Assembly: GCA_945878865.1 (NCBI GenBank)
Contig: CAMCUD010000004.1
Location: 124,001 to 188,000, forward strand
Length of the DNA: 64,000 bases
Reading direction: 5' to 3'
Origin: Bifidobacterium breve
GTDB lineage: Bacteria; Actinomycetota; Thermoleophilia; Solirubrobacterales; Solirubrobacteraceae
The stretch's first letter is position 1. Each line of letters starts with the position of its first letter. Below, piece after piece: positions 3,495 to 51,912 of this stretch. The position numbers were made by a program, and so were the translations under genes. The notes under the pieces are model-generated. The model searched no databases. It was not told the origin of the DNA and saw only the letters and a program-made list of their open reading frames with translations.

Positions 3495-3920
3495 TCAGCG
3501 GACGGCGTCCGCGTGCGCGCTCAGCCCGTAGATCACGAGGACCAGCAGGATGATCGCCACGAGCGCGAAGATCGGCAGGACGGGGAGGACGAGCACCCAG
3601 AAGATCGCGCCGATCGTCGCCAGGACGAGGCCGACGACCGGGCCGGCGGACGATCCCGAGAGCAGCAGGAACGCGGCGCCGCACTCCAGGACGCCCCAGA
3701 CGATCGCGACCCAGCCCCACAGCGTCAGGGTGCTGAACAGCACGCCGGATTCGGGCAGGTACTCCTTGTTGTCCAGGGCGCCGATGCCCCAGAGGACGTT
3801 CGCGGCGCCGGCGATGAGGAACAGCACGCCGGCGAAGGTGATCCAGCCGTGGCCGGACGGACGGGCGGTGGAGGCTTCCATGGTCCGATTCTCGCGGGCG
3901 ACGTCGCCGCCCTGCGTCAC
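3495..3920 (-). CDS. DUF7144-like membrane protein
   Basis: A small four-helix membrane protein of 128-141 residues. The core pattern, GWITFAGVLFLIAGAANVLWGI, then a polar loop with LTLWGWVAIVWGVLEC, then a third and fourth TM and a final ILVLVIYGL, is that of the actinobacterial DUF7144 family, whose function is unknown. Two starts are possible. GTG at 3920 overlaps the stop codon of the upstream transporter (GTGA), which would give translational coupling. ATG at 3881 begins just before the conserved part. I list the coupled start, but the first 13 residues are doubtful. It probably forms an operon with the AI-2E-family transporter upstream. Confidence 0.65.
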   Translation of the reverse strand: MTQGGDVARENRTMEASTARPSGHGWITFAGVLFLIAGAANVLWGIGALDNKEYLPESGVLFSTLTLWGWVAIVWGVLECGAAFLLLSGSSAGPVVGLVLATIGAIFWVLVLPVLPIFALVAIILLVLVIYGLSAHADAVR

Positions 3921-5096: not shown

Positions 5097-5558
5097 ATGG
5101 CGATCACCAGCACGACCAACGGCACCCCGCCGCCCGTCCTCGGGACGTCGGCCGAGGCGACCGTCCGCTCCTTCCTCGAACTCCTGGCCTCGGAGGATCT
5201 CGACGGCGCGCTCGCGCTCCTCGACGAGGACGTGGCCTACACGAACGTCGGCCTGCCGACCGTGCGCGGCCGGCACGTCGTCGACCGGCTGTTCCGCCCG
5301 GCGCTCGGCCGGGCCGGCTTCAAGGTGCATTTCGACAACGTCGTCTCCGACGGGCGCGTGGTGCTCACCGAGCGGGTCGACGCCCTCGTGCTCGGCCCGG
5401 TGCACTGGCAGTTCTGGGTCTACGGCCGGTTCGAGGTCGTCGACGGGAAGATCACGGTGTGGCGCGACAGCTTCGACTACCTCGACGTGAACATCGGGCT
5501 GCTGCGCGGAATCGTCGGCGTCGTGGTGCCGGGCGTGCGTCGGCGCTGGCCGGACTGA
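5097..5558 (+). CDS. Limonene-1,2-epoxide hydrolase family protein
   Basis: A 153-residue NTF2-fold protein. The five catalytic residues of the Rhodococcus limonene-1,2-epoxide hydrolase all have counterparts at matching spacing: Y48 and N50 (AYTNVG), R93 and D95 (TERVD) and D124 (WRDSFD). The family opens epoxides by one-step general-acid/base water attack. The natural substrate here is unknown, as related proteins act on terpene or steroid epoxides. The ATG at 5097 is preferred over one 36 bases upstream, since the intervening codons are a low-complexity Ala/Arg stretch. It is divergent from the AI-2E transporter gene and has no clear pathway partners nearby. Confidence 0.8.
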   Translation: MAITSTTNGTPPPVLGTSAEATVRSFLELLASEDLDGALALLDEDVAYTNVGLPTVRGRHVVDRLFRPALGRAGFKVHFDNVVSDGRVVLTERVDALVLGPVHWQFWVYGRFEVVDGKITVWRDSFDYLDVNIGLLRGIVGVVVPGVRRRWPD

Positions 5559-5595
5559 GCAGGGTTGTGGGCGCCGTGCGTCGAAGGAGTGACGC

Positions 5596-5757
5596 ATGGC
5601 CGTCGCTGTCTCGACGCAGGCGCAGGTGTCGCTGGGGATCCGGGTGATCCGCCGCCGCGAGGATCACGTGCGGTTCCCGGTGGTGGGGACGGCGGTCGCT
5701 CCGGCGGCCGCGCAGCTCGTGCTGGGGCGGCGGTGCAGGCGGCGGGCGGTGCGGTAG
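5596..5757 (+). CDS. Possible small basic protein (53 residues)
   Basis: This short reading frame is preceded by an excellent ribosome binding site, AAGGAG at 5584-5589, 6 bases before the ATG. The product is 53 residues with an Ala/Val-rich body and a very basic C-terminus (RRCRRRAVR). No family is recognised. The strong Shine-Dalgarno argues for translation; the plain composition and high GC argue against, because such frames arise by chance in GC-rich DNA. It sits alone between the epoxide-hydrolase-like gene and the tRNA-Ala gene. Confidence 0.35.
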   Translation: MAVAVSTQAQVSLGIRVIRRREDHVRFPVVGTAVAPAAAQLVLGRRCRRRAVR

Positions 5758-5816
5758 GGGCTCGCGACTGACGAAGTCCCCGGATGTGGGGTGCTTCGTC
5801 AGCCACGATGACCGCA

Positions 5817-5889
5817 TGGAGCCAGCCGGGCTCGAACCGGCGGCCTCCGCCTTGCAAAAGCGGCGCTCTACCAACTGAGCTATGGCCCC
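5817..5889 (-). tRNA. tRNA-Ala (anticodon TGC)
   Basis: The minus strand folds into a standard 73-nt cloverleaf. The 7-bp acceptor stem pairs GGGGCCA with TGGCTCC and includes the G3-U70 wobble pair that is the alanine identity element. The D arm is GCTC/GAGC, the anticodon stem is CCGCT/GGCGG with loop TTTGCAA (anticodon at 5854-5856), and the T arm is GCCGG/CCGGC with loop TTCGAGC. The discriminator base is A. The CCA end is not encoded; the bases after A73 are TGC. The frameshifted nuclease-like gene just upstream on the same strand reads 10 bases into its 5' end. Confidence 0.97.
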
Positions 5890-6328
5890 AGGCCGTCAAG
5901 TGTAAGAGCCTCGGGTCGGAGGGACCGATCGTCGTCGGCAAGGCGGACATCCCGGGTCCGGTTGCGCCGACAAGGGGCGGACCGGACGTGAAGCTCTGTC
6001 CGCCCGGAGAACCCCGTGGACGGCAGGTACAGGCACGCTCCGGTAGGAGCGTCGTAGACGGCGATCCACTCGACGTCATCTGCGGTGTAGGAACGGCGTG
6101 ACACGGAGCCCCCGCCGACGATCGTCTGGGTGTCGCAGCGGACTTCGACCGTTACGCCATCGGACCTGGTGTGCTTGACCTGCACGCGCTGCAGGTGCCC
6201 CTGTGGCCTGGACCAGAATGTCGGCGTCCCAGTTCTCGCCGAACGGGAATGCCACCATGTGGCCTTTGCGGCGTAGGTCGAGCGCCCACGGCGAGTTCGG
6301 CGACGTCTCCCGGGAGCTTCGTGTTCAC
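5880..6328 (-). pseudogene. Frameshifted PD-(D/E)XK nuclease-like gene (second tandem copy)
   Basis: This is a paralogue of the intact gene just upstream, broken by two single-base insertions in G-runs. From GTG at 6328 the frame reads GDVAELAV, then an extra G (near 6286-6289) shifts it. The next frame reads LDLRRKGHMVAFPFGENWDAD. A second extra G in a GGGG run (near 6199-6202) shifts it again, into RVQVKHTRSDG and the C-terminal part. Removing both bases restores a continuous protein aligned end to end with the neighbour, including its E, D and QxK active-site residues. The reading frame ends at a TAG inside the tRNA-Ala gene. Either it is a true recent pseudogene or the two insertions are homopolymer sequencing errors. 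Its start lies 2 bases after the neighbour's stop, so the two were once co-translated. Confidence 0.8.
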
Positions 6329-6330
6329 GA

Positions 6331-6747
6331 TCAGAACTCGAGATAGTCCGCGAACACGCGAATGCCCATGACTTGTCCGTTGCGCGTCGGGGCGATCCGC
6401 AGCGTCAGTTCGCTCCGTCCATCGCCCAGTTCGGCTGCGGGGATGTAGGCGCACGTATCGGTGGTCGAGTCCCACACAGCGAGCCAGTCGATATCCGCCG
6501 CCGTGTACTTCCTCACGCGGCGCACTCTGCCAGCGGTGACGGTCAGGGTCCGGGCGCGAACGACGAGCGTTTGGCCGTCCGAGCGCCCATGTTTCACCTG
6601 CACGCGTTCGAGTTCGCCTCCTCGGCACACGATGAGGTCAGCGAGCCAGTCCTCGCCCCACGGCACGGCGATGAGGTGACCCCTGCGCCGGATGTCTGCG
6701 GCGACCTTGAGCTCCGCGACATCGCCCTTCTGCTTCATGGGATTCAC
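6331..6747 (-). CDS. PD-(D/E)XK endonuclease-like protein (group I intron-associated type)
   Basis: A 138-residue protein matching the small PD-(D/E)XK fold family first described in group I intron-associated endonucleases (PF11645 type). Active-site residues are E12 (GDVAELKV), D37 (DWLADLIV) and Q50-x-K52 (VQVKHGRSDG), in the usual order and spacing for metal-dependent phosphodiester cleavage. The remainder is a beta-rich segment with DIDWLAVWDSTTDTCAYIP. No intron or partner methyltransferase is nearby, so a free-standing DNA-repair or restriction-like role is possible but unproven. GTG at 6747 is used, with AGGAAG upstream; ATG at 6738 is an alternative. A frameshifted second copy follows directly downstream. 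Confidence 0.72.
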   Translation of the reverse strand: MNPMKQKGDVAELKVAADIRRRGHLIAVPWGEDWLADLIVCRGGELERVQVKHGRSDGQTLVVRARTLTVTAGRVRRVRKYTAADIDWLAVWDSTTDTCAYIPAAELGDGRSELTLRIAPTRNGQVMGIRVFADYLEF

Positions 6748-6800
6748 GCCGACGATCTTCCTCGGACGAGTTCAGCCCGTGGGGTGATTGCGCAGAGTTG

Positions 6801-7703
6801 TTACACCTTTCTCTCCGCACGCTCCGCCACCGCCCGCGCCGTCGCCAGGTTGATCTCCACCGTGTCCCGCACATCCGGCGCATAGCCGCCCGCCAGGACC
6901 ACGCACACCGCCGCGCCCCACGCGGCCGCCCGGTCGAGCACGAGCGCGTCCCGCGCCGCCAGCCCGCCCTTCGTCAGCGCGAGCCGGCCGAGCCGGTCGC
7001 CCTCCCACGGATCGGCCGCGGCGAGGTAGAAGACGAGATCTGCGCCGCCGACCACGTCGAGCGCGTCCGACAGCGCGAAGAGGTAGTCGTCGTCCCCCGT
7101 GCCGTCGCGCAGGTCGACGTCCAGATCGCTCGTCGCGCGCTTGAACGGGTAGTTCGCCCCGCCGTGGATCGACAGCGTGAACACCGACGGATCGTCAGTG
7201 AAGAGCTCCGCCGTCCCGTCACCCTGATGCACGTCGCAGTCGACGATCGCGACCCGCCCGAAGAACCCCTCCGCCCGCAGCGCGCTGACCGCCACCGCGA
7301 GATCGTTGAACAGGCAGTACCCGCGCCCGGCCGCCCGCCCGGCGTGGTGCGTGCCGCCGCCGAGGTTCATCCCGTACCCGCCGCGCCCCAGCGCGTCGCG
7401 GGCGGCGTCGACCGTCCCCATCGTCGATCGGCGCCCCCGTTCCACGAGCGCGGCCGACCACGGCAGCCCGAGCACGCGGATCTCGCGGTCGGTCATCGCG
7501 CCGGTGCGCACGCGGTCGAGGTACGACGCCGCGTGCACCGTGCCCAGGAGCTCCCACGAGGCGGGTGCCGACGCCACGACGTCCTCCGGCCCCGCGACGC
7601 CCTCCGCAACGAGCCGCTCCCGCAGCCGCCGGTACTTCGCCAGCGGGAACTTGTGTCCGTCAGGCAACGGGAAGTCATGCCGGTCGTGGGCCCAGAACCG
7701 CAT
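6801..7703 (-). CDS. Histone deacetylase family protein (class IV-like)
   Basis: A 300-residue enzyme with the full arginase/deacetylase active site. The catalytic histidine pair is H119-H120 (GGGTHHA), the zinc ligands are D157 and H159 (VDCDVHQGDGT) and D231 (DPWEGD), and the catalytic tyrosine is Y274 (AGGYAPD). The short length and the lack of class I/II insertions resemble HDAC11-like (class IV) bacterial members, which deacetylate or deacylate proteins or small amines. The bacterial substrate is unknown. ATG at 7703 is preferred over GTG at 7709. It is divergent from an SDR gene, with 43 bases between the two start codons. Confidence 0.87.
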   Translation of the reverse strand: MRFWAHDRHDFPLPDGHKFPLAKYRRLRERLVAEGVAGPEDVVASAPASWELLGTVHAASYLDRVRTGAMTDREIRVLGLPWSAALVERGRRSTMGTVDAARDALGRGGYGMNLGGGTHHAGRAAGRGYCLFNDLAVAVSALRAEGFFGRVAIVDCDVHQGDGTAELFTDDPSVFTLSIHGGANYPFKRATSDLDVDLRDGTGDDDYLFALSDALDVVGGADLVFYLAAADPWEGDRLGRLALTKGGLAARDALVLDRAAAWGAAVCVVLAGGYAPDVRDTVEINLATARAVAERAERKV

Positions 7704-7746
7704 GCTCACTGTCCGTTGCGCGCGTCAGCAGCGATCATTCGCAGCC

Positions 7747-8550
7747 ATGAGTCTGCCCCAGCCCGCCGCCGACGCGACGATCCTGATCACCGGCGCCTCC
7801 TCCGGCATCGGCGAGGAGCTCGCCCACCAGCTTGCCGCGAAGGGTCACAACGTCGTCCTCGTCGCCCGCCGCGTGGATCGCCTGCGCGCCCTCGCCGACG
7901 ACCTGCAGCGCCGCCACGGCATCCGCGCCGATGTCCTGCCCGCCGACCTCGGTGATCCTGCCGCCCGCGAGCGCCTCGTCACCGAGATCGACGGGCTCGA
8001 CCTCTCGATGTCCGCCGTCATCAACAACGCCGGCTTCGGCGGCTCCGGCTTCTTCGCGCGCAGCGACCAGGAGACCGAGCGCGAGATGGTCCGTGTCAAC
8101 GTCGACGCCCTCCATCACCTCACGGGTGCGTTCGTCCCGGGGCTCGTCGAGCGCGGCGAGGGCGCGGTGCTCAACGTCGCGAGCCTGGCCGCCAGCCAGC
8201 CGCTGCCGCTCTTCGCCACGTACGCGGCGACGAAGGCCTTCGTCCTGTCGTTCAGCGAGGCGCTGCACGCCGAGCTGTCGGGCACCGGCGTGTCGGTCAC
8301 CGCCCTCTGCCCGGGCCCGGTGCCGACCGAGTTCGGCGAACGGGCCGGCATGGGCGACGTCGAGGAGACGCTGCCGAGCCTGGCGACCGTCCCCGTGGAG
8401 CAGGTCGCGCGCGAGGCGATCGAGGGGATGGAGCGCGGCCGGCGCACGGTGACGCCGGGAATCCTCATGAAGGGCGCCTCCCTGGCCGGGCGCTACACGC
8501 CGCGCGCGATCCTGCTGCCGCTCACCAAGCACGGGATGCGCGCGATCTGA
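7747..8550 (+). CDS. Short-chain dehydrogenase/reductase (classical SDR)
   Basis: A 267-residue classical SDR. It has the NAD(P)-binding TGASSGIGE motif at residues 15-23, NNAG at 93-96, a catalytic Ser near 146 and Y159-x3-K163 (YAATKAF). An Arg-Arg pair after the second beta strand (VARRVDR) suggests NADP preference. The C-terminal part (GRYTPRAILLP) matches a subgroup often annotated as DltE- or YqjQ-like. The substrate is unknown. Zwf starts 27 bases downstream on the same strand but has its own -10 box. Confidence 0.85.
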   Translation: MSLPQPAADATILITGASSGIGEELAHQLAAKGHNVVLVARRVDRLRALADDLQRRHGIRADVLPADLGDPAARERLVTEIDGLDLSMSAVINNAGFGGSGFFARSDQETEREMVRVNVDALHHLTGAFVPGLVERGEGAVLNVASLAASQPLPLFATYAATKAFVLSFSEALHAELSGTGVSVTALCPGPVPTEFGERAGMGDVEETLPSLATVPVEQVAREAIEGMERGRRTVTPGILMKGASLAGRYTPRAILLPLTKHGMRAI

Positions 8551-8562
8551 CCGCCCGCGCCG

Positions 8563-8568
8563 TAGGCT
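8563..8568 (+). promoter_or_regulatory. -10 box TAGGCT of zwf (leaderless type)
   Basis: TAGGCT fits the TANNNT -10 consensus and ends 9 bases before the zwf ATG. No Shine-Dalgarno sequence is present. Transcription from this box would begin at or next to the A of the start codon. Confidence 0.5.
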
Positions 8569-8577
8569 TGGCGCGCC

Positions 8578-9981
8578 ATGGCCGAAGCGAACGACCAGAC
8601 CCCCGGCGACGTCCTCGTCATCTTCGGGCTCACGGGCGACCTGGCGAAGGTCATGACCTTCCGGTCGCTCTACCGCCTCGAGTCACGCGGGATCCTGAGC
8701 ACGCCGATCGTCGGCGTCGCGGTCGACGACTGGAGCCTGGACAAGCTCCGCGACCATGCGCGGGCGTGCATCGAGCACACCGGTGAGCAGGTCGACGACG
8801 AGATCTTCGCCCGCTTCGCCAACCGCCTCTCCTACGTTTCCGGCGACTTCAACGACCCGCAGACGTACGCGAAGGTCAAGGACGCGATCGGTGAGGCCAC
8901 GACGCCGGTCTACTACCTCGAGATCCCGCCGTTCCTGTTCGGCACGGTCGTCAGCGGGCTCGGGGAGGCCGAGGCGATCCGCGACGGCCGGGTCGTCGTC
9001 GAGAAGCCGTTCGGCCACGATCTCGCATCGGCCCGCGCGCTGAACGACCAGCTGCACGAGCACCTTCCTGAGGGCAAGCTCCTGCGCATCGACCACTTCC
9101 TCGGGAAGATGGGCCTCGAGGAGCTCCTCTACCTGCGCTTCGCCAACACCATGCTCGAGCCGGTGTGGAACCGCAACTACGTCAAGGCCGTGCAGATCAC
9201 GATGGCGGAGAACCTCGACGTCGCCGATCGCGGGCACTTCTACGACCCCGTCGGCGCGCTGCGTGACGTCGTCGTCAACCACATGCTCCAGCTGCTGGCC
9301 GCGGCCGCGATGGAAGCGCCGCCTTCGCAGGACGCCAAGACGCTGAAGGACCATCAGTACGCGGTGTTCGCGGCGATGCGCCCGGGCAACCCCAAGCACT
9401 ACGTCCGCGGCCAGTACCAGGGCTACCGCGACGTGGCGGGCGTCTCCCCCGACTCGGAGACCGAGACGTTCGCCGCCGTCCGCTTCGAGGTCGACAACTG
9501 GCGCTGGGCAGGCGTGCCGTTCTTCCTGCGCACCGGCAAATGCCTGCCGGTCAAGCAGACCGAGGTGCGGCTCGTCTTCCGTAAGCCGCCGAAACTCGGG
9601 TTCACCGACCACCAGCACCGGCCCGAGGAGCCCGGCCAGATCGTCGTGCGGCTCGATCCGATGACCGGGGTGCGCATGCGCGTCGACGCCAAGCGCGCGG
9701 ACAAGAAGAAGCCCGCGCTCATCGACCTCGACATGACGTTCGCCGAGGAGGGCGGTGAGGGCCCGACCCCGTACGAGGTCCTGCTCTCCGACGCGCTGGC
9801 CGGCCGCAGCCAGCGCTTCACCCGCCAGGACGCCGTCATGGAGCAGTGGCGCATCGTGCAGCCGCTGCTCGACGATCCGCCGCCCGTGATCGAGTACCCA
9901 CCCGGGACGTGGGGTCCCGCCGCGGCCGACGAGCTCGTCAAGCACCACGGCGGCTGGCACGCCCCGTGGCTTCCTGCCTGA
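8578..9981 (+). CDS. zwf: Glucose-6-phosphate 1-dehydrogenase
   Basis: A 467-residue enzyme of normal family length that oxidises glucose-6-phosphate to 6-phosphogluconolactone in the oxidative pentose phosphate pathway, making NADPH. The nucleotide-binding motif FGLTGDLA is at residues 16-23. The substrate-binding signature RIDHFLGK is at 170-177 (the common Tyr is Phe here). The catalytic histidine is H235 (VVVNHMLQ), and EKPFG is at 142-146. No 6-phosphogluconolactonase, gnd or opcA gene lies beside it. A small ABM-like gene follows 23 bases downstream and may be co-transcribed. Confidence 0.96.
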   Translation: MAEANDQTPGDVLVIFGLTGDLAKVMTFRSLYRLESRGILSTPIVGVAVDDWSLDKLRDHARACIEHTGEQVDDEIFARFANRLSYVSGDFNDPQTYAKVKDAIGEATTPVYYLEIPPFLFGTVVSGLGEAEAIRDGRVVVEKPFGHDLASARALNDQLHEHLPEGKLLRIDHFLGKMGLEELLYLRFANTMLEPVWNRNYVKAVQITMAENLDVADRGHFYDPVGALRDVVVNHMLQLLAAAAMEAPPSQDAKTLKDHQYAVFAAMRPGNPKHYVRGQYQGYRDVAGVSPDSETETFAAVRFEVDNWRWAGVPFFLRTGKCLPVKQTEVRLVFRKPPKLGFTDHQHRPEEPGQIVVRLDPMTGVRMRVDAKRADKKKPALIDLDMTFAEEGGEGPTPYEVLLSDALAGRSQRFTRQDAVMEQWRIVQPLLDDPPPVIEYPPGTWGPAAADELVKHHGGWHAPWLPA

Positions 9982-10004
9982 AGACCGACCCGAAGGAGCG
10001 CCAG

Positions 10005-10295
10005 ATGTTCGCCCGCATCGCGACGTACCGGGGCATCATGGAGGACCAGCTCGAGGGCTTTCTGCCCAAGCTGCAGAAGATGACCGAGCGCGAGGTTGCG
10101 GGGCTCGAGGAGATCCTCGTCGTGCTCGACCGGCAGACCGGCACCGCGCAGTCCATCCTCTTCTTCGACACCGATGAGAGCATGCGCGCCGCGAGCAAGC
10201 AGCTGGAGAACGCCATTCCGATGACCGAGGCTGGCGGCGTGCGGACTGACATCGAGCACTACGAAGTGCTGCTGCGCGAGCGGCCCGGCGCGTAG
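10005..10295 (+). CDS. Small protein of dimeric alpha/beta-barrel (ABM-like) type
   Basis: A 96-residue protein starting at ATG 10005, with GAAGGAG at 9992-9998 as ribosome binding site. The pattern FARIATYRG, a helix, EEILVVLDRQTGTAQSILFFDTDESMRAAS, then a C-terminal strand ending in HYEVLLRE is that of antibiotic-biosynthesis-monooxygenase-like dimeric alpha+beta barrels. Family members range from heme-degrading monooxygenases to proteins without known catalysis. No catalytic residue can be named here. It follows zwf by 23 bases and is probably transcribed with it. Confidence 0.65.
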   Translation: MFARIATYRGIMEDQLEGFLPKLQKMTEREVAGLEEILVVLDRQTGTAQSILFFDTDESMRAASKQLENAIPMTEAGGVRTDIEHYEVLLRERPGA

Positions 10296-10323
10296 GCCGG
10301 ACCGCCCGCGAGGAGCAGGAACG

Positions 10324-11439
10324 TCAGGCCGCGGCGGCGGCGAGCAGCTCGCCGGCGACGCGATCCGTGCTCGCGCCGATGCCGCCGAGCAGGCGACGCG
10401 ACAGCTGCGAGCGCCGGAAGTACAGCGGCGCGTCGTGCTCCCACGTCGCGCCGATGCCGCCGTGGGTGGCGATCTGCGTGCGGGCCGCGTAGTCGAACGC
10501 GTGGCCGGCCGCGGTGCGGGCGGCGCTCGCGGCGACGGCGAACTCCTCGGGCTTGTCCTCGTAGGAGTAGCCGGAGTACAGGAGCACGGCGTACGCGTTC
10601 TCGCGCTGGCGCAGGATCTCGACGAGCGCGTGCTTGACCGCCTGGTACGAGCCGATCTGCCGGCCGAACGTGAAGCGCTCCTTGGCATACTCGACGCTCA
10701 CCGTCAGCGCGGTCTCCACCGCGCCGTACGACTCCGCGGCGAGCAGCGCCTGCGCGACGTACCACGCGCGCTGCGGATCGGCGCCCTCGAGCACCGTCGC
10801 CGGCGCGTTGGTGAGCGACACATGGCCGAGCAGGCGCGAGCTGTCGTAGCGCAGGACCGGCCCCTCGACGCTGACGCCGGAGGCGCCCGTCTCGATGGCG
10901 ACGGTCTTCGCGGCGCCCGACCCGTCGACGGCGACGCCGGCGAGGAGGTCCGCGCCCGGAGCGTCGATCACCCACGCGACGTCACCGCTGACGGTGCCGT
11001 CGGCGTTGAGCGTCGGCGCGGGCGCCGGGGCGCTCCCGCCGCGCGGCTGCGTCGTCCACGACGGCTCGAGGTCGCTCGGCGGGATGACCGGCAGGAACGC
11101 GGCGCGCTTCGTGCCCTCCGCGTAGTCGGCCGTGCCGGCGTACGAGGCGGCGTCGAGCGCCACCGTCGCGGGCAGGTGCCCGAGCAGCTCGTGCGAGGCC
11201 AGGACCTTGCCCGCCTCGATGAGGATGAGCTGGGCGTCGAAGAGGCTGAGCCCCACGCCGCCGTTGGCCTCGGAGACCAGCAGCCCGGCCCAGCCCTGCT
11301 CGGCCACGAGGTCCCAGTTCTCCGGTCGCGCGCCACCTTCCAGTGCCGAGCGCAGGACCTCGAGGTCCGCGACGCGGGTGAGCGCGCCCTGCGCGGCCTC
11401 GCGCAGCGCGACCTGCTCGTCGGTCAGCTCCAGGTTCAT
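10324..11439 (-). CDS. Acyl-CoA dehydrogenase family protein (second of pair)
   Basis: A 371-residue acyl-CoA dehydrogenase-like protein. The N-terminal helical domain (MNLELTDEQVALREA), the central beta domain, and the C-terminal helical domain with YAKERFTFGRQIGSYQAVKH and THGGIGATWEHDAP are recognisable. The C-terminal motif is typical of FAD-binding at the dimer interface. The middle domain holds a long Ala/Pro loop (GGSAPAPAPTLNADG), and the protein is shorter than a full catalytic member. In actinobacterial steroid and fatty-acid catabolism such divergent subunits pair with a second ACAD to form alpha2beta2 enzymes. Its ATG overlaps the stop of the other ACAD (ATGA), consistent with a heteromeric complex. 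Confidence 0.85.
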   Translation of the reverse strand: MNLELTDEQVALREAAQGALTRVADLEVLRSALEGGARPENWDLVAEQGWAGLLVSEANGGVGLSLFDAQLILIEAGKVLASHELLGHLPATVALDAASYAGTADYAEGTKRAAFLPVIPPSDLEPSWTTQPRGGSAPAPAPTLNADGTVSGDVAWVIDAPGADLLAGVAVDGSGAAKTVAIETGASGVSVEGPVLRYDSSRLLGHVSLTNAPATVLEGADPQRAWYVAQALLAAESYGAVETALTVSVEYAKERFTFGRQIGSYQAVKHALVEILRQRENAYAVLLYSGYSYEDKPEEFAVAASAARTAAGHAFDYAARTQIATHGGIGATWEHDAPLYFRRSQLSRRLLGGIGASTDRVAGELLAAAAA

Positions 11440-46896: not shown

Positions 46897-48348
<1,452 letters not shown>

Positions 48349-48393
48349 TACGGCCTCGGCGGCCACGCTCTGTGACGCCCCGCACCCAAAGTT

Positions 48394-48409
48394 GACACAC
48401 GCGGTTGTC
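48394..48409. promoter_or_regulatory. Twin operator, copy 1 (TetR-AurF operon)
   Basis: GACACACGCGGTTGTC is an imperfect palindrome (GACA...TGTC ends). A near-identical copy begins 31 bases downstream. The copy overlaps TTGACA at 48392-48397, the best -35 candidate of the operon. Confidence 0.55.
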
Positions 48410-48424
48410 TGCATCTGCAAACAT

Positions 48425-48440
48425 GACACCCGTGGTTGTC
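48425..48440. promoter_or_regulatory. Twin operator, copy 2 (TetR-AurF operon)
   Basis: GACACCCGTGGTTGTC differs from copy 1 at two of 16 positions and is itself a 12/16 palindrome. The 31-base spacing is almost exactly three helical turns, placing two repressor dimers on the same DNA face. It lies 17 bases before the TetR ATG. Confidence 0.55.
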
Positions 48441-48457
48441 CAGAACGCCCCGGCGTC

Positions 48458-49126
48458 ATGACCGAGCTCGTCCGCCCCTGGCGCGGCATGAGCCCCGAGC
48501 AGCGCGTGGCCGAGCGCCGCGAGCGCCTGCTGGCCGCCGCGCTCGAGGTGTTCACCGCCCAGGGGTTCGCCGCCGCGCGCGTCCGCGACGTCTGCGCCGA
48601 GGCGGGGCTGACCCAGCGCTACTTCTACGAGTCGTTCGCCGACAAGGACGCCGCGATTGTCGCGCTCGCCCAGGAGATCGTCGCCGACCTCGTCACGGCC
48701 GTCGGTCCTTCGCTGGAGGGCGCCGCCGCCGGTGACGACGACGCCATCGCCGCGCTCTCGCACGCCGTCGTCGCCTCCCTGACCGACGACCCTCGCCGCG
48801 CGCGCATCCTCTTCGTCGAGGTCGTCGGCGTCAGCCCGGAGCTCGAGGACATCCGCCGCGCGGTGATCGGCGGGCTCGTCGAGGTCTCCCGCACCGCCGT
48901 CGCCGGCGCCTACGGCGAGTGGGCGCGCACCTCGCTGGAGATCGAGCTCATCGCCCGCGCCCTCGTGGGCGCCGCCCAGGAACTGCTGATCGCGTACATC
49001 CGCGGCGAGCTGCCGATAACCCAGGACGAACTTGCCGAGCACGTCGGCCGGGTCCTCCTGCGGGCACGGCCGATCATCGCCGCCCTCGCCACCGAGCACA
49101 CCCCCCTGACCACGGAGCATCCATGA
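48458..49126 (+). CDS. TetR family transcriptional regulator of the AurF operon
   Basis: A 222-residue TetR protein. The helix-turn-helix region is RRERLLAAALEVFTAQGFAA, RVRDVCAEAGLTQRYFYESF and DKDAAIVALAQEIV. The ligand domain is all-helical with ARILFVEVVGVSPELEDIRR. ATG at 48458 is chosen since the 22 codons before it overlap the operators. The stop overlaps the AurF gene by ATGA. It most probably represses its own operon through the twin palindromes upstream. Confidence 0.87.
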   Translation: MTELVRPWRGMSPEQRVAERRERLLAAALEVFTAQGFAAARVRDVCAEAGLTQRYFYESFADKDAAIVALAQEIVADLVTAVGPSLEGAAAGDDDAIAALSHAVVASLTDDPRRARILFVEVVGVSPELEDIRRAVIGGLVEVSRTAVAGAYGEWARTSLEIELIARALVGAAQELLIAYIRGELPITQDELAEHVGRVLLRARPIIAALATEHTPLTTEHP

Positions 49127-50115
49127 CCCCGGTCGCCGCCCCGCCCGCGCGTGACGCGCACTACGAGGAGATGCTGCGGACCCTGTCCGAGGGATCCGTG
49201 CACATCCACTTCGACCCGTACGAGGACATCGCGTGGGATTCGCCCGAGCTGGCGATCTCGCCCGACGACCCGGCGTGGGTGCTCTCGCCCGAGCACGACC
49301 CGCTCGGCGCGACCGCGTGGTACCAGGCGCTGCCCGCCGAGCGCCAGCGCGAGATCGGCATGTGGCGCCTGGCCAACGCGATCCGCGTGGGCGCGGCGTT
49401 CGAGAGCATGCTCATCCGCGGGCTCATGCAGTTCGCGGTCGCGCTGCCCAACCAGTCGCCCGAGTTCCGGTACTGCCTCCACGAGATGACGGAGGAGTGC
49501 AACCACATCCAGATGTTCCAGGAGCTCGTCAACCGGATCGGCGTCGACGTCCCCGGCATGCGTCCCTGGCTGCGCTGGGCGTCGCCGGTGATCGGCGGCA
49601 TCCTGGCCGTCCGCCCGGTCTCGCTGATGATCGCGATCCTCGCCGGCGAGGAGCCCATCGACCACTACCAGAAGGCCCTGCTGCGTGACGAGGGCACCGT
49701 CCCCGCCGCGGTCCGCCGGACCATGGAGATCCACATCGCCGAGGAGGCGCGCCACATCTCCTTCGCCGGGGAGTTCCTGCGCCTGCGGCTGCGCAAGCTC
49801 GGGCCGGCCCAGCGCATGGCGCTGTCCGTCACGTTCCCGCTGACGATGCGCCTCGCGTGCGAGGAGATCATGACCATGCCGTGGCCCATGGCCAAGCGCC
49901 TGGGGATCCCGCGCGAGGTCTACCGCGAGGCGTTCTGGCGCAGCCCGAAGTCCCGCGAGATCATGGCGAGCTACTTCGGCGACATGCGCAAGCTCGCCAC
50001 GGAGACCGGCCTCATGACGCCGCTGGGCACGCGGGTGTGGAAGGCGCTGGGCATCTACGGCGAGCCGTCGCGCTACCGCGGCGAGCCCGACCGCACCGCG
50101 CGCGTCCTGGCCTGA
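49123..50115 (+). CDS. AurF-like di-iron N-oxygenase/hydroxylase
   Basis: A 330-residue non-heme di-iron protein of the AurF family (PF11583). The predicted ligands match AurF in order and spacing: E94, E125 and H128 (TEECNH), E177 (GEEP), then H204, E208 and H211 (HIAEEARH). AurF oxidises an aromatic amine to a nitro group; other members hydroxylate different substrates. No natural-product cluster surrounds it, so the substrate is open. It is coupled to the TetR gene before it and overlaps the ferredoxin-reductase gene after it (TGATG), which could supply electrons. Confidence 0.85.
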   Translation: MTPVAAPPARDAHYEEMLRTLSEGSVHIHFDPYEDIAWDSPELAISPDDPAWVLSPEHDPLGATAWYQALPAERQREIGMWRLANAIRVGAAFESMLIRGLMQFAVALPNQSPEFRYCLHEMTEECNHIQMFQELVNRIGVDVPGMRPWLRWASPVIGGILAVRPVSLMIAILAGEEPIDHYQKALLRDEGTVPAAVRRTMEIHIAEEARHISFAGEFLRLRLRKLGPAQRMALSVTFPLTMRLACEEIMTMPWPMAKRLGIPREVYREAFWRSPKSREIMASYFGDMRKLATETGLMTPLGTRVWKALGIYGEPSRYRGEPDRTARVLA

Positions 50116-51548
50116 TGGCGCACGTCGTCACGCAGTCGTGCGTCGGCGACGGGTCGTGCGTGTACGCGTGCCCCGTCAACTGCATCCAGCCGACGCCGGA
50201 CGACCCGCGGTTCGAGCTCGCGGAGATGCTGCACATCGACCCGGCGGCCTGTGTGGACTGCGGGGCGTGCGTCACGGCGTGCCCGGTTGACGCGATCAAG
50301 CCGCACGCCCGGCTGGCACCCGAAGAGCGGGCGTTCGAGGCGATCAACGCGGCGTTCCACCGCGAAGCGCGGCCGCGTCCGTTGCTCGCGCCCGTCCGCC
50401 CGCGCCTGCTCGTGCGCGACCACGGGGAGGACCTGCGCGTGGCGGTCGTCGGCTCGGGCCCGGCCGCGCTCTACGCCGCCGAGGAGGTCCTCACGATCCC
50501 CGGCGCGACCGTGTCCGTCTACGAGCGCCAGGACCGCCCGTACGGGCTCGTGCACGCGGGCGTCGCGCCGGACCACCGCCGCACCCGCCGCGTGAGCCGC
50601 CAGCTCGACACGATCCGCCGCCACCCGCGGCTGACGCTGCACCTCGGCGTCGAGGTCGGTCGCGACGTCACGCACGATCAGCTCACCGACACGCATCACG
50701 CCGTCATCTACGGCGTCGGTGCAGCGTCCGACCGGCGGCTGGAGATCCCCGGGGCCGATCTGCCCGGCGTGGTGCCCGCCACCGAGGCGGTCGCCTGGTA
50801 CAACGGCGCGCTCGGGTCGGACGGCACCAGGCTGAACCTGTCGGGCCGCCGCGTCGTCATCGTCGGCAACGGCAACGTCGCGCTCGACATCGCTCGGATC
50901 CTCGCGATGGATCCCGAGGCGCTCGCCGGCAGCGACATCGCGCCGGCCGCGCTCGACGTGCTCCGCGCCAGCGCCGTCGAGGAGGTGGTCGTGGTGGGCC
51001 GTCGCGGTCCCGAGCGCTCGGCCTTCACCCTCCCGGAGATCGTCGGCCTCACCGCGACGCCCGGCGTCGCCGTGCAGGTCGTGTCGGAGGAGCTGGCGGG
51101 CGCGCCGTCCGGCCCGAAGGTCGACCTCCTGCGCGGACTCGGCGCCCCCGCCGACGGGGCGCGGCGGATCGTCCTGCGGTACGGGCTAACTCCGGAGCGG
51201 GTGCTCGGCGCCGCGGAGGTCGAGGGGATCGCCTTCCGGCGCACCGCCGGCGACGGTGGGGAGACGTTCGCGACTGGGCTCGTGGTGCCGTCGATCGGCT
51301 ACCGCGGCGAGCCGGTGCCGGCGTTGCCGTACGACCCCGTCCGCGGCATCGTCCCCAACGACGAGGGCCGCGTCGTCGACCCCGTCACCGGCGCGCCGAT
51401 GCCCCGCACGTACGTCGTCGGGTGGGCCAAGCGCGGGCCGACCGGGTTCATCGGGACGAACAAGGGCTGCTCGCAGGACACGGTCGCCGCGCTCGTCGAC
51501 GACCACAACGCTGGGCTCCTGGGCGTCATGCGGCACCGGGCCGCGTGA
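50115..51548 (+). CDS. Ferredoxin-ferredoxin:NADP reductase fusion (FprB-type)
   Basis: A 477-residue fusion. Residues 1-65 are a 7Fe-type ferredoxin with C9, C15, C19, C46, C49, C52 and C56 (plus C23), fitting one 3Fe-4S and one 4Fe-4S cluster. Residues 105-470 form an adrenodoxin-reductase-like FAD/NADP domain with VAVVGSGPAALYAAEE, GLVHAGVAPDHRRTR, RVVIVGNGNVALDIAR and WAKRGPTGFIGTNKGCSQDT. This is the FprB layout of actinobacteria. It transfers electrons from NADPH to oxygenases and is the obvious partner of the AurF-like protein encoded immediately upstream. Confidence 0.92.
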   Translation: MAHVVTQSCVGDGSCVYACPVNCIQPTPDDPRFELAEMLHIDPAACVDCGACVTACPVDAIKPHARLAPEERAFEAINAAFHREARPRPLLAPVRPRLLVRDHGEDLRVAVVGSGPAALYAAEEVLTIPGATVSVYERQDRPYGLVHAGVAPDHRRTRRVSRQLDTIRRHPRLTLHLGVEVGRDVTHDQLTDTHHAVIYGVGAASDRRLEIPGADLPGVVPATEAVAWYNGALGSDGTRLNLSGRRVVIVGNGNVALDIARILAMDPEALAGSDIAPAALDVLRASAVEEVVVVGRRGPERSAFTLPEIVGLTATPGVAVQVVSEELAGAPSGPKVDLLRGLGAPADGARRIVLRYGLTPERVLGAAEVEGIAFRRTAGDGGETFATGLVVPSIGYRGEPVPALPYDPVRGIVPNDEGRVVDPVTGAPMPRTYVVGWAKRGPTGFIGTNKGCSQDTVAALVDDHNAGLLGVMRHRAA

Positions 51549-51912
51549 CGACGACCTCGCCCGTCATCTGCGGGTGGATGGTGCACTGGTAGCGCATCGT
51601 CCCGACCTTCTCAGCGGTCCACGTGTACGTCGTCCCCGGCGGGATCGCGGCCGACGCCGGGGAGTTCGTCATCCCCTTGCCCGCCACCGTGTGGTCGGTC
51701 TGCCCGTCGTTGCGCCACGTGACGGTCTCGCCCTTGGCGATGGTGATGGTCTCCGGCTGGAAGTCGTTGTCCTGGATGGCGACGGTGACCCCCGGCCCGG
51801 CCGCGGGATTCGCGTTGCGGGTGGGCGTGGGCGCCGTCGCGGCGGTCTCGTCATCGCCGCCTCCGCACGCGGCGAGCGCGAGGGCGGCGAGAAGTGGGGC
51901 AGCACGGCGCAT
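51526..51912 (-). CDS. Cupredoxin-domain (plastocyanin-like) lipoprotein
   Basis: A 128-residue lipoprotein with lipobox LALAAC (lipid Cys16) and a Thr/Ala-rich spacer, then a blue-copper domain. The type 1 copper ligands are H74 (TDHTVAG), C110, H113 and M116 (YQCTIHPQM). The block QDNDFQPETITIAKGETVTWRN is typical of plastocyanin/amicyanin. It probably carries electrons at the outer membrane face to a terminal oxidase or a copper enzyme that is not in this window. Its end overlaps the reductase gene by 23 bases in convergent orientation. Confidence 0.88.
   Translation of the reverse strand: MRRAAPLLAALALAACGGGDDETAATAPTPTRNANPAAGPGVTVAIQDNDFQPETITIAKGETVTWRNDGQTDHTVAGKGMTNSPASAAIPPGTTYTWTAEKVGTMRYQCTIHPQMTGEVVVTRPGAA

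What the first reader, a model, noticed from the sequence alone, without database searches (positions are those of the whole stretch)
48394..51548. TetR - AurF-like di-iron oxygenase - ferredoxin/FNR operon with twin operators three turns apart
The three genes overlap by 1-4 bases. The AurF-like protein keeps all seven di-iron ligands at AurF spacing, and its likely redox partner is fused as 7Fe-ferredoxin plus reductase next door. Two near-identical 16-base palindromes are 31 bases apart, so two dimers sit on the same helix face, one covering a TTGACA. The oxygenase with a dedicated reductase outside any natural-product cluster suggests an inducible detoxification or catabolic N- or C-hydroxylation.
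Basis: partly seen in the sequence, partly recalled or inferred. Interest (0 to 1): 0.62.

Follow-up and report, generated by a model that had tools for sequence, protein, structure and literature searches.

The report
Repressor-controlled AurF-type oxygenase with reductase
A soil actinobacterium carries a switchable three-gene unit: a repressor, an iron enzyme that uses oxygen to modify an unknown small molecule, and the protein that feeds it electrons; the enzyme-reductase pair turns out to be a fixed partnership across actinobacteria, including mycobacteria, although its substrate is unknown.

Summary
TetR (48458-49126), an AurF-family (PF11583) di-iron oxygenase (49123-50115) and a ferredoxin-FprA-type reductase fusion (50115-51548) overlap by 4 bp and 1 bp. 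Two 16-bp imperfect palindromes, 14/16 identical, lie 31 bp apart in front of TetR. In the window alone that pair is not beyond chance. Comparison makes it convincing: all six TetR-AurF-reductase loci in the family carry operator(s), the 31-bp spacing recurs in two other species, and the exact consensus occurs three times in the 4.96-Mb genome, twice here and once before a paralogous operon. The oxygenase keeps the 3-His/4-Glu set shared with the N-oxygenases AurF and CmlI, but is very remote from them. The redox-partner guess is much strengthened: in 146 family genomes the fusion and this AurF occur together or not at all (18 with, 0 exceptions); phylum-wide, 16 of 16 AurF genomes carry the fusion, against 5 of 380 others. 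The pair with the same TGATG overlap occurs in mycobacteria, where the fusion corresponds to FprB. Most likely this is a TetR-autorepressed, NADPH-driven two-component monooxygenase. N- versus C-oxidation, inducer and substrate are unknown. A new member of a known kind with one useful new association.

The parts
48394..48409 (+). operator 1, GACACACGCGGTTGTC; overlaps TTGACA 48392-48397
   Evidence: same place and spacing in G140 and Conexibacter sp. CPCC 205762 (G030/L097)
48425..48440 (+). operator 2, GACACCCGTGGTTGTC, 31 bp after operator 1; the better conserved copy, and the only one in the paralogous operons
48392..48397 (+). TTGACA, possible -35 element; TT before operator 1 kept in four loci, but no matching -10 found
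48458..49126 (+). TetR-family regulator, 222 aa
   Evidence: PF00440 39 bits; orthologues 58-84% identical, all next to AurF
49123..50115 (+). AurF-family ferritin-like di-iron oxygenase, 330 aa; ligands E94, E125, H128, E177, H204, E208, H211
   Evidence: PF11583 327 bits; invariant ligands; model closest to AurF and CmlI
50115..51548 (+). N-terminal 7Fe-type ferredoxin fused to FprA-type ferredoxin-NADP+ reductase (FprB-like), 477 aa

Best explanation
This is an autoregulated operon for a two-component, NADPH-dependent di-iron monooxygenase. Shown by sequence comparison: a TetR regulator co-inherited with its operators, and an AurF-type oxygenase inseparable from a ferredoxin-reductase fusion. 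Inferred: TetR dimers sit on both 16-bp sites on nearly the same helix face and block transcription of the whole unit; an unknown small molecule releases them. The reductase half takes electrons from NADPH through FAD to the fused ferredoxin and on to the di-iron site. The reduced site binds O2 as a peroxo species and oxidises a small molecule, more likely at nitrogen than at carbon because the full AurF/CmlI-type 3-His/4-Glu ligand set is kept. The 4-bp and 1-bp gene overlaps couple translation, so regulator, oxygenase and reductase are made together.
For: Operators: the exact consensus GACACNCGNGGTTGTC occurs 3 times in 4.96 Mb, twice here and once before the paralogous TetR-AurF-FprB operon. 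All six TetR-AurF-reductase loci have operator(s), with 31-bp spacing in window, G140 and Conexibacter and 30 bp in G123. In 146 family genomes an exact degenerate pattern hits 11 times, 6 of them at these loci. Recognition helix TQRYFYESF/TERYFYESF is kept. Partnership: AurF in 17 of 146 family genomes; full-length fusion in the same 17 plus G062, whose contig ends inside an adjacent AurF; p about 2e-23 by Fisher, ignoring relatedness. Phylum: 16 of 16 AurF genomes carry the fusion versus 5 of 380 others. TGATG junction in Mycobacterium, Mycolicibacterium, Actinomadura, Prauserella and Conexibacter. Twelve named genomes whose AurF locus lacks the fusion beside it, or nearly so, all hold a fusion elsewhere (14 of 14 genomes tested). 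Enzyme: ligands invariant; H204/E208/H211 align with AurF; model Z 17.6 to AurF and 17.4 to CmlI.
Against: No binding, expression or enzyme data. Sequence similarity to characterised AurF is not significant, and R2 and R2-like oxidases score almost as well structurally (Z 16-17). No promoter with a proper -10 was found. Most AurF relatives lack this TetR, so the regulation is a lineage feature. Five phylum genomes have a fusion, of 44-50% identity, without this AurF. Fisher values ignore phylogeny.
Confidence: 0.72

Rival explanations
1. The oxygenase hydroxylates carbon in lipid, terpenoid or alicyclic catabolism instead of oxidising nitrogen; the alcohol is then dehydrogenated, oxidised by a Baeyer-Villiger enzyme and hydrolysed.
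For: The paralogous operon on G000:C47 is followed by alpha/beta hydrolase, SDR and a monooxygenase with the BVMO fingerprint FAGRTMHTARWD, near AtuA-like and acyl-CoA dehydrogenase genes. G080 has AurF-AurF-fusion-BVMO. In M. abscessus two diiron oxygenases are listed next to a Rv3049c-like monooxygenase and an SDR (PMC10715180).
Against: That neighbourhood is rare among about 100 loci and absent at the window copy. The seventh His ligand is described as characteristic of N-oxygenases of this fold (PMC13061610).
Confidence: 0.35
2. The ferredoxin-reductase is a general electron donor (for example to cytochromes P450), and its place next to the oxygenase is incidental.
For: M. tuberculosis FprB is discussed as a possible P450 partner (PMC6469627, PMC6208970). 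A few genomes hold a fusion without this AurF.
Against: Co-occurrence without exception in the family, 16/16 in the phylum sample, and a conserved translational overlap. Most fusion-free genomes in the family keep a separate stand-alone FprA-like reductase.
Confidence: 0.1
3. The palindromes are not TetR operators, or TetR acts as an activator or on other targets.
For: A promoter is not recognisable; palindrome pairs of this quality arise by chance in the window.
Against: Perfect association of operators with this TetR in six loci, and rarity elsewhere.
Confidence: 0.1
4. A relic of a natural-product pathway making a nitro, azoxy or diazo compound.
For: Characterised members of the fold (AurF, CmlI, Dob3) serve such pathways (PMC13061610).
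Against: No biosynthetic genes nearby; intact, conserved genes; paired broadly across actinobacteria.
Confidence: 0.05

Closest known systems
Mycobacterial AurF-like protein + FprB pair (M. tuberculosis Rv0885-Rv0886; Rv0885 as the AurF-like member is recalled, not tested here)
   Same: AurF-family gene directly followed by a ferredoxin-FNR fusion with the same TGATG overlap, seen here in Mycobacterium and Mycolicibacterium loci; FprB is a documented Fd-FNR fusion (PMC6469627)
   Different: No relative of this TetR was found in those loci; Rv0885 is reported as CRP-activated (PMC4117774)
AurF (aureothin) and CmlI (chloramphenicol) arylamine N-oxygenases
   Same: PF11583, ferritin-like di-iron fold, 3-His/4-Glu ligand set
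   Different: No significant sequence similarity beyond the motifs; not in a biosynthetic cluster; has a genetically dedicated reductase, which Dob3 of the same fold lacks in its cluster (PMC13061610)
FprA of M. tuberculosis (1LQT)
   Same: Reductase half aligns over residues 109-463, 254 bits
   Different: FprA has no fused 7Fe-type ferredoxin
TetR/AcrR autorepressor operons
   Same: TetR gene first, palindromes just upstream, structural genes behind
   Different: Two separate 16-bp sites three turns apart, specific to this small TetR clade

Membership tests
AurF family (PF11583) | Profile match above curated cut-off | tested here: met
   327 bits against 29.6, profile 2-282 of 282
AurF family (PF11583) | Seven di-iron ligands (4 Glu, 3 His) including the extra His of N-oxygenases | tested here: met
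   E94 E125 H128 E177 H204 E208 H211 invariant in 19 relatives; H204, E208, H211 align with AurF; criterion from PMC13061610 and PMC13108848
AurF family (PF11583) | AurF-like ferritin fold | tested here: met
   pLDDT 84 model; best Z 17.6 to AurF, 17.4 to CmlI; R2 proteins nearly tied
AurF family (PF11583) | Direct sequence relation to the characterised enzymes | tested here: inconclusive
   No PDB hit at E 0.001; profile E 0.61 to AurF
AurF-type N-oxygenase (function) | N-oxygenation of an amine | not testable with these tools
   needs enzyme assay
FprB-like Fd-FNR fusion | N-terminal 3Fe/4Fe ferredoxin fused to FprA-type reductase | tested here: met
   C9-X5-C15-X3-C19P...C23 and C46-X2-C49-X2-C52-X3-C56P, conserved in mycobacterial homologues
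FprB-like Fd-FNR fusion | Cluster type 3Fe-4S/4Fe-4S and NADPH use | not testable with these tools
   inferred from motifs and FprA homology
TetR regulators | TetR_N helix-turn-helix domain | tested here: met
   PF00440, 39.3 bits against 24
TetR autorepressor operon | Palindromic sites in the own promoter region, conserved with the regulator | tested here: met
   6 of 6 loci; genome-wide rarity
TetR autorepressor operon | Binding and ligand-induced release | not testable with these tools
   needs EMSA, footprinting and inducer screen

The most novel reading that the evidence does not exclude
The AurF-like protein and the FprB-type ferredoxin-reductase fusion form an obligate two-component monooxygenase across actinobacteria, so the native client of mycobacterial FprB, usually discussed as a P450 partner, is this di-iron enzyme. 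In the present lineage the unit has been placed under its own inducible TetR switch.
Probability: 0.5. Interest if true: 0.5.

Novelty: new member of a known kind. Interest (0 to 1): 0.36.

Why it matters
The operon is ordinary in kind, but the comparison gives a testable assignment: FprB-type fusions travel with one AurF-like oxygenase. That would name a client for a mycobacterial redox protein whose partner is open, and it gives a self-contained enzyme, reductase and inducible promoter set for finding the substrate and for biocatalysis, where the redox partner of AurF-type enzymes may not be encoded in the cluster (Dob3, PMC13061610).

Tried and rejected
Significance of the twin palindromes inside the window alone: not beyond chance; replaced by phylogenetic footprinting. 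A sigma-70 promoter: none found. A further regulon member at G000:C15:23754 (TTGACATTCGGCGTTGTC between an MPAB/Lcp-type oxygenase and DUF5718): no conserved counterpart of that region was found in the congeners, so not claimed. AurF homology by direct PDB search failed; fold comparison used instead. Fd-FNR adjacency does not mark a single AurF clade. Literature searches found no functional study of the pair. The first two family scans failed on a wrong end coordinate and were repeated.

Full report
What is there. The window is part of a 4.96-Mb genome of the family that also holds Conexibacter sp. CPCC 205762 and Patulibacter. Three genes on the + strand overlap: TetR 48458-49126, AurF-type oxygenase 49123-50115 (ATGA), ferredoxin-reductase fusion 50115-51548 (TGATG). 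Pfam confirms the assignments. The reductase half is FprA-like (1LQT, 254 bits), and among ferredoxins the 7Fe type fits well. Upstream lie thiamine genes (ThiE, a ThiO-like oxidase, ThiG) and a SnoaL-like gene; downstream a convergent cupredoxin and then ornithine carbamoyltransferase. No natural-product genes were seen among these neighbours.

Operators. The two 16-mers are 31 bp apart and agree at 14/16; each has 6 of 8 symmetric pairs. In the window alone such pairs are not rare (4 found, 1.4 expected in Markov sequence). The independent tests are strong. GACACNCGNGGTTGTC occurs exactly three times in the genome: twice here and once before a second TetR-AurF-fusion operon on contig C47. 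Among the AurF loci of the family, TetR orthologues stand next to AurF in six (window, C47, two in G140, Conexibacter G030, G123) and all six carry the sites. Spacing is 31 bp in the window, G140 and Conexibacter and 30 bp in G123; the C47-type paralogues have one site. Over 146 genomes the exact degenerate pattern hits 11 times, 6 at these loci. Operator 2 is the more conserved one, and TT precedes operator 1 in all four twin loci, giving TTGACA, but no -10 box is recognisable. That TetR represses and that two dimers bind is inference.

Oxygenase. Ligands E94, E125, H128, E177, H204, E208 and H211 are invariant in 19 relatives. The HxxxExxH stretch aligns with AurF's own. The predicted model matches AurF (Z 17.6) and CmlI (17.4) best, with R2 proteins close behind. 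Published work describes AurF and CmlI as 3-His/4-carboxylate N-oxygenases and the extra His as characteristic of N-oxygenases of this fold (PMC13108848, PMC13061610). Sequence similarity to them is otherwise insignificant, so substrate and reaction cannot be read from homology.

Partnership. In 146 family genomes, 17 have this AurF. The full-length fusion is in the same 17 and in G062, whose short contig ends inside an adjacent AurF. Other genomes with a listed hit match over the reductase half, as stand-alone FprA-like proteins. In 396 actinobacterial genomes all 16 with a close AurF (E below 1e-90) carry the fusion, against 5 of the 380 others. By the listed coordinates each of those 16 has at least one AurF-fusion neighbour pair. 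Among 80 named loci 25 have the fusion directly 3', most of the closely spaced ones with TGATG, including Mycobacterium and Mycolicibacterium. Fourteen named genomes, most of them chosen because the AurF locus found lacks the fusion, all hold a fusion somewhere. Relatedness is not corrected for; the adjacency label changes about eight times on the AurF tree, so the link is not one frozen event. In M. tuberculosis the fusion is FprB, Rv0886 (PMC6469627, PMC6208970). That Rv0885 is the AurF-like neighbour is from general knowledge and was not tested on that genome.

Function. The most probable reading is an autorepressed, NADPH-driven di-iron monooxygenase for an unknown small molecule. N-oxidation is favoured by the ligand set. 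C-hydroxylation is the main rival: the C47 copy is followed by alpha/beta hydrolase, SDR and a Baeyer-Villiger monooxygenase, and G080 has AurF-AurF-fusion-BVMO; M. abscessus lists two diiron oxygenases beside a Rv3049c-like monooxygenase (PMC10715180). The window copy has no such context.

Verdict. Observation confirmed with corrections; interpretation partly supported. The kind of system is known; the added value is the strict AurF-fusion partnership and the footprinted operators.

Noticed in passing
L066 10490-18530 (G000:C47) versus L059: The paralogous operon is 98.1% and its 4.8-kb flank 99.5% identical in DNA to G140, while the window operon is 83.4% and its thi neighbours 85.4% between the same two genomes: recent transfer or a shared mobile island carrying TetR-AurF-fusion, hydrolase, SDR, BVMO and an ABC1-like kinase.
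   Followed up: partly
L003 728-1621 (-): A Mutator-family transposase (PF00872) lies in or beside an AtuA-like gene on C47; the G140 counterpart ORF is 484 aa against 280 aa here.
   Followed up: partly
L065 (G080) about 5190-11397: Tandem AurF-AurF-fusion-BVMO cluster beside acyl-CoA dehydrogenases, resembling the M. abscessus MAB_3918c-3922c set named in PMC10715180.
   Followed up: partly
G000:C33:29374-29391 and L073: More distant TetR paralogues (34-41% identity) also have TTGACA-N8-TGTC sites just upstream: this TetR group may generally place an operator over a TTGACA.
   Followed up: no
G000:C15:23754-23771 (L178 about 3755-3772): Operator-like TTGACATTCGGCGTTGTC between an MPAB/Lcp-type oxygenase and a DUF5718 gene; no conserved counterpart found in congeners.
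   Followed up: yes
51526-51912 (-): Small cupredoxin lipoprotein-like gene overlapping the end of the reductase gene tail to tail by 23 bp.
   Followed up: no
47866-48349 (+): SnoaL-like gene starting inside the ThiG stop region and ending about 45 bp before operator 1.
   Followed up: no
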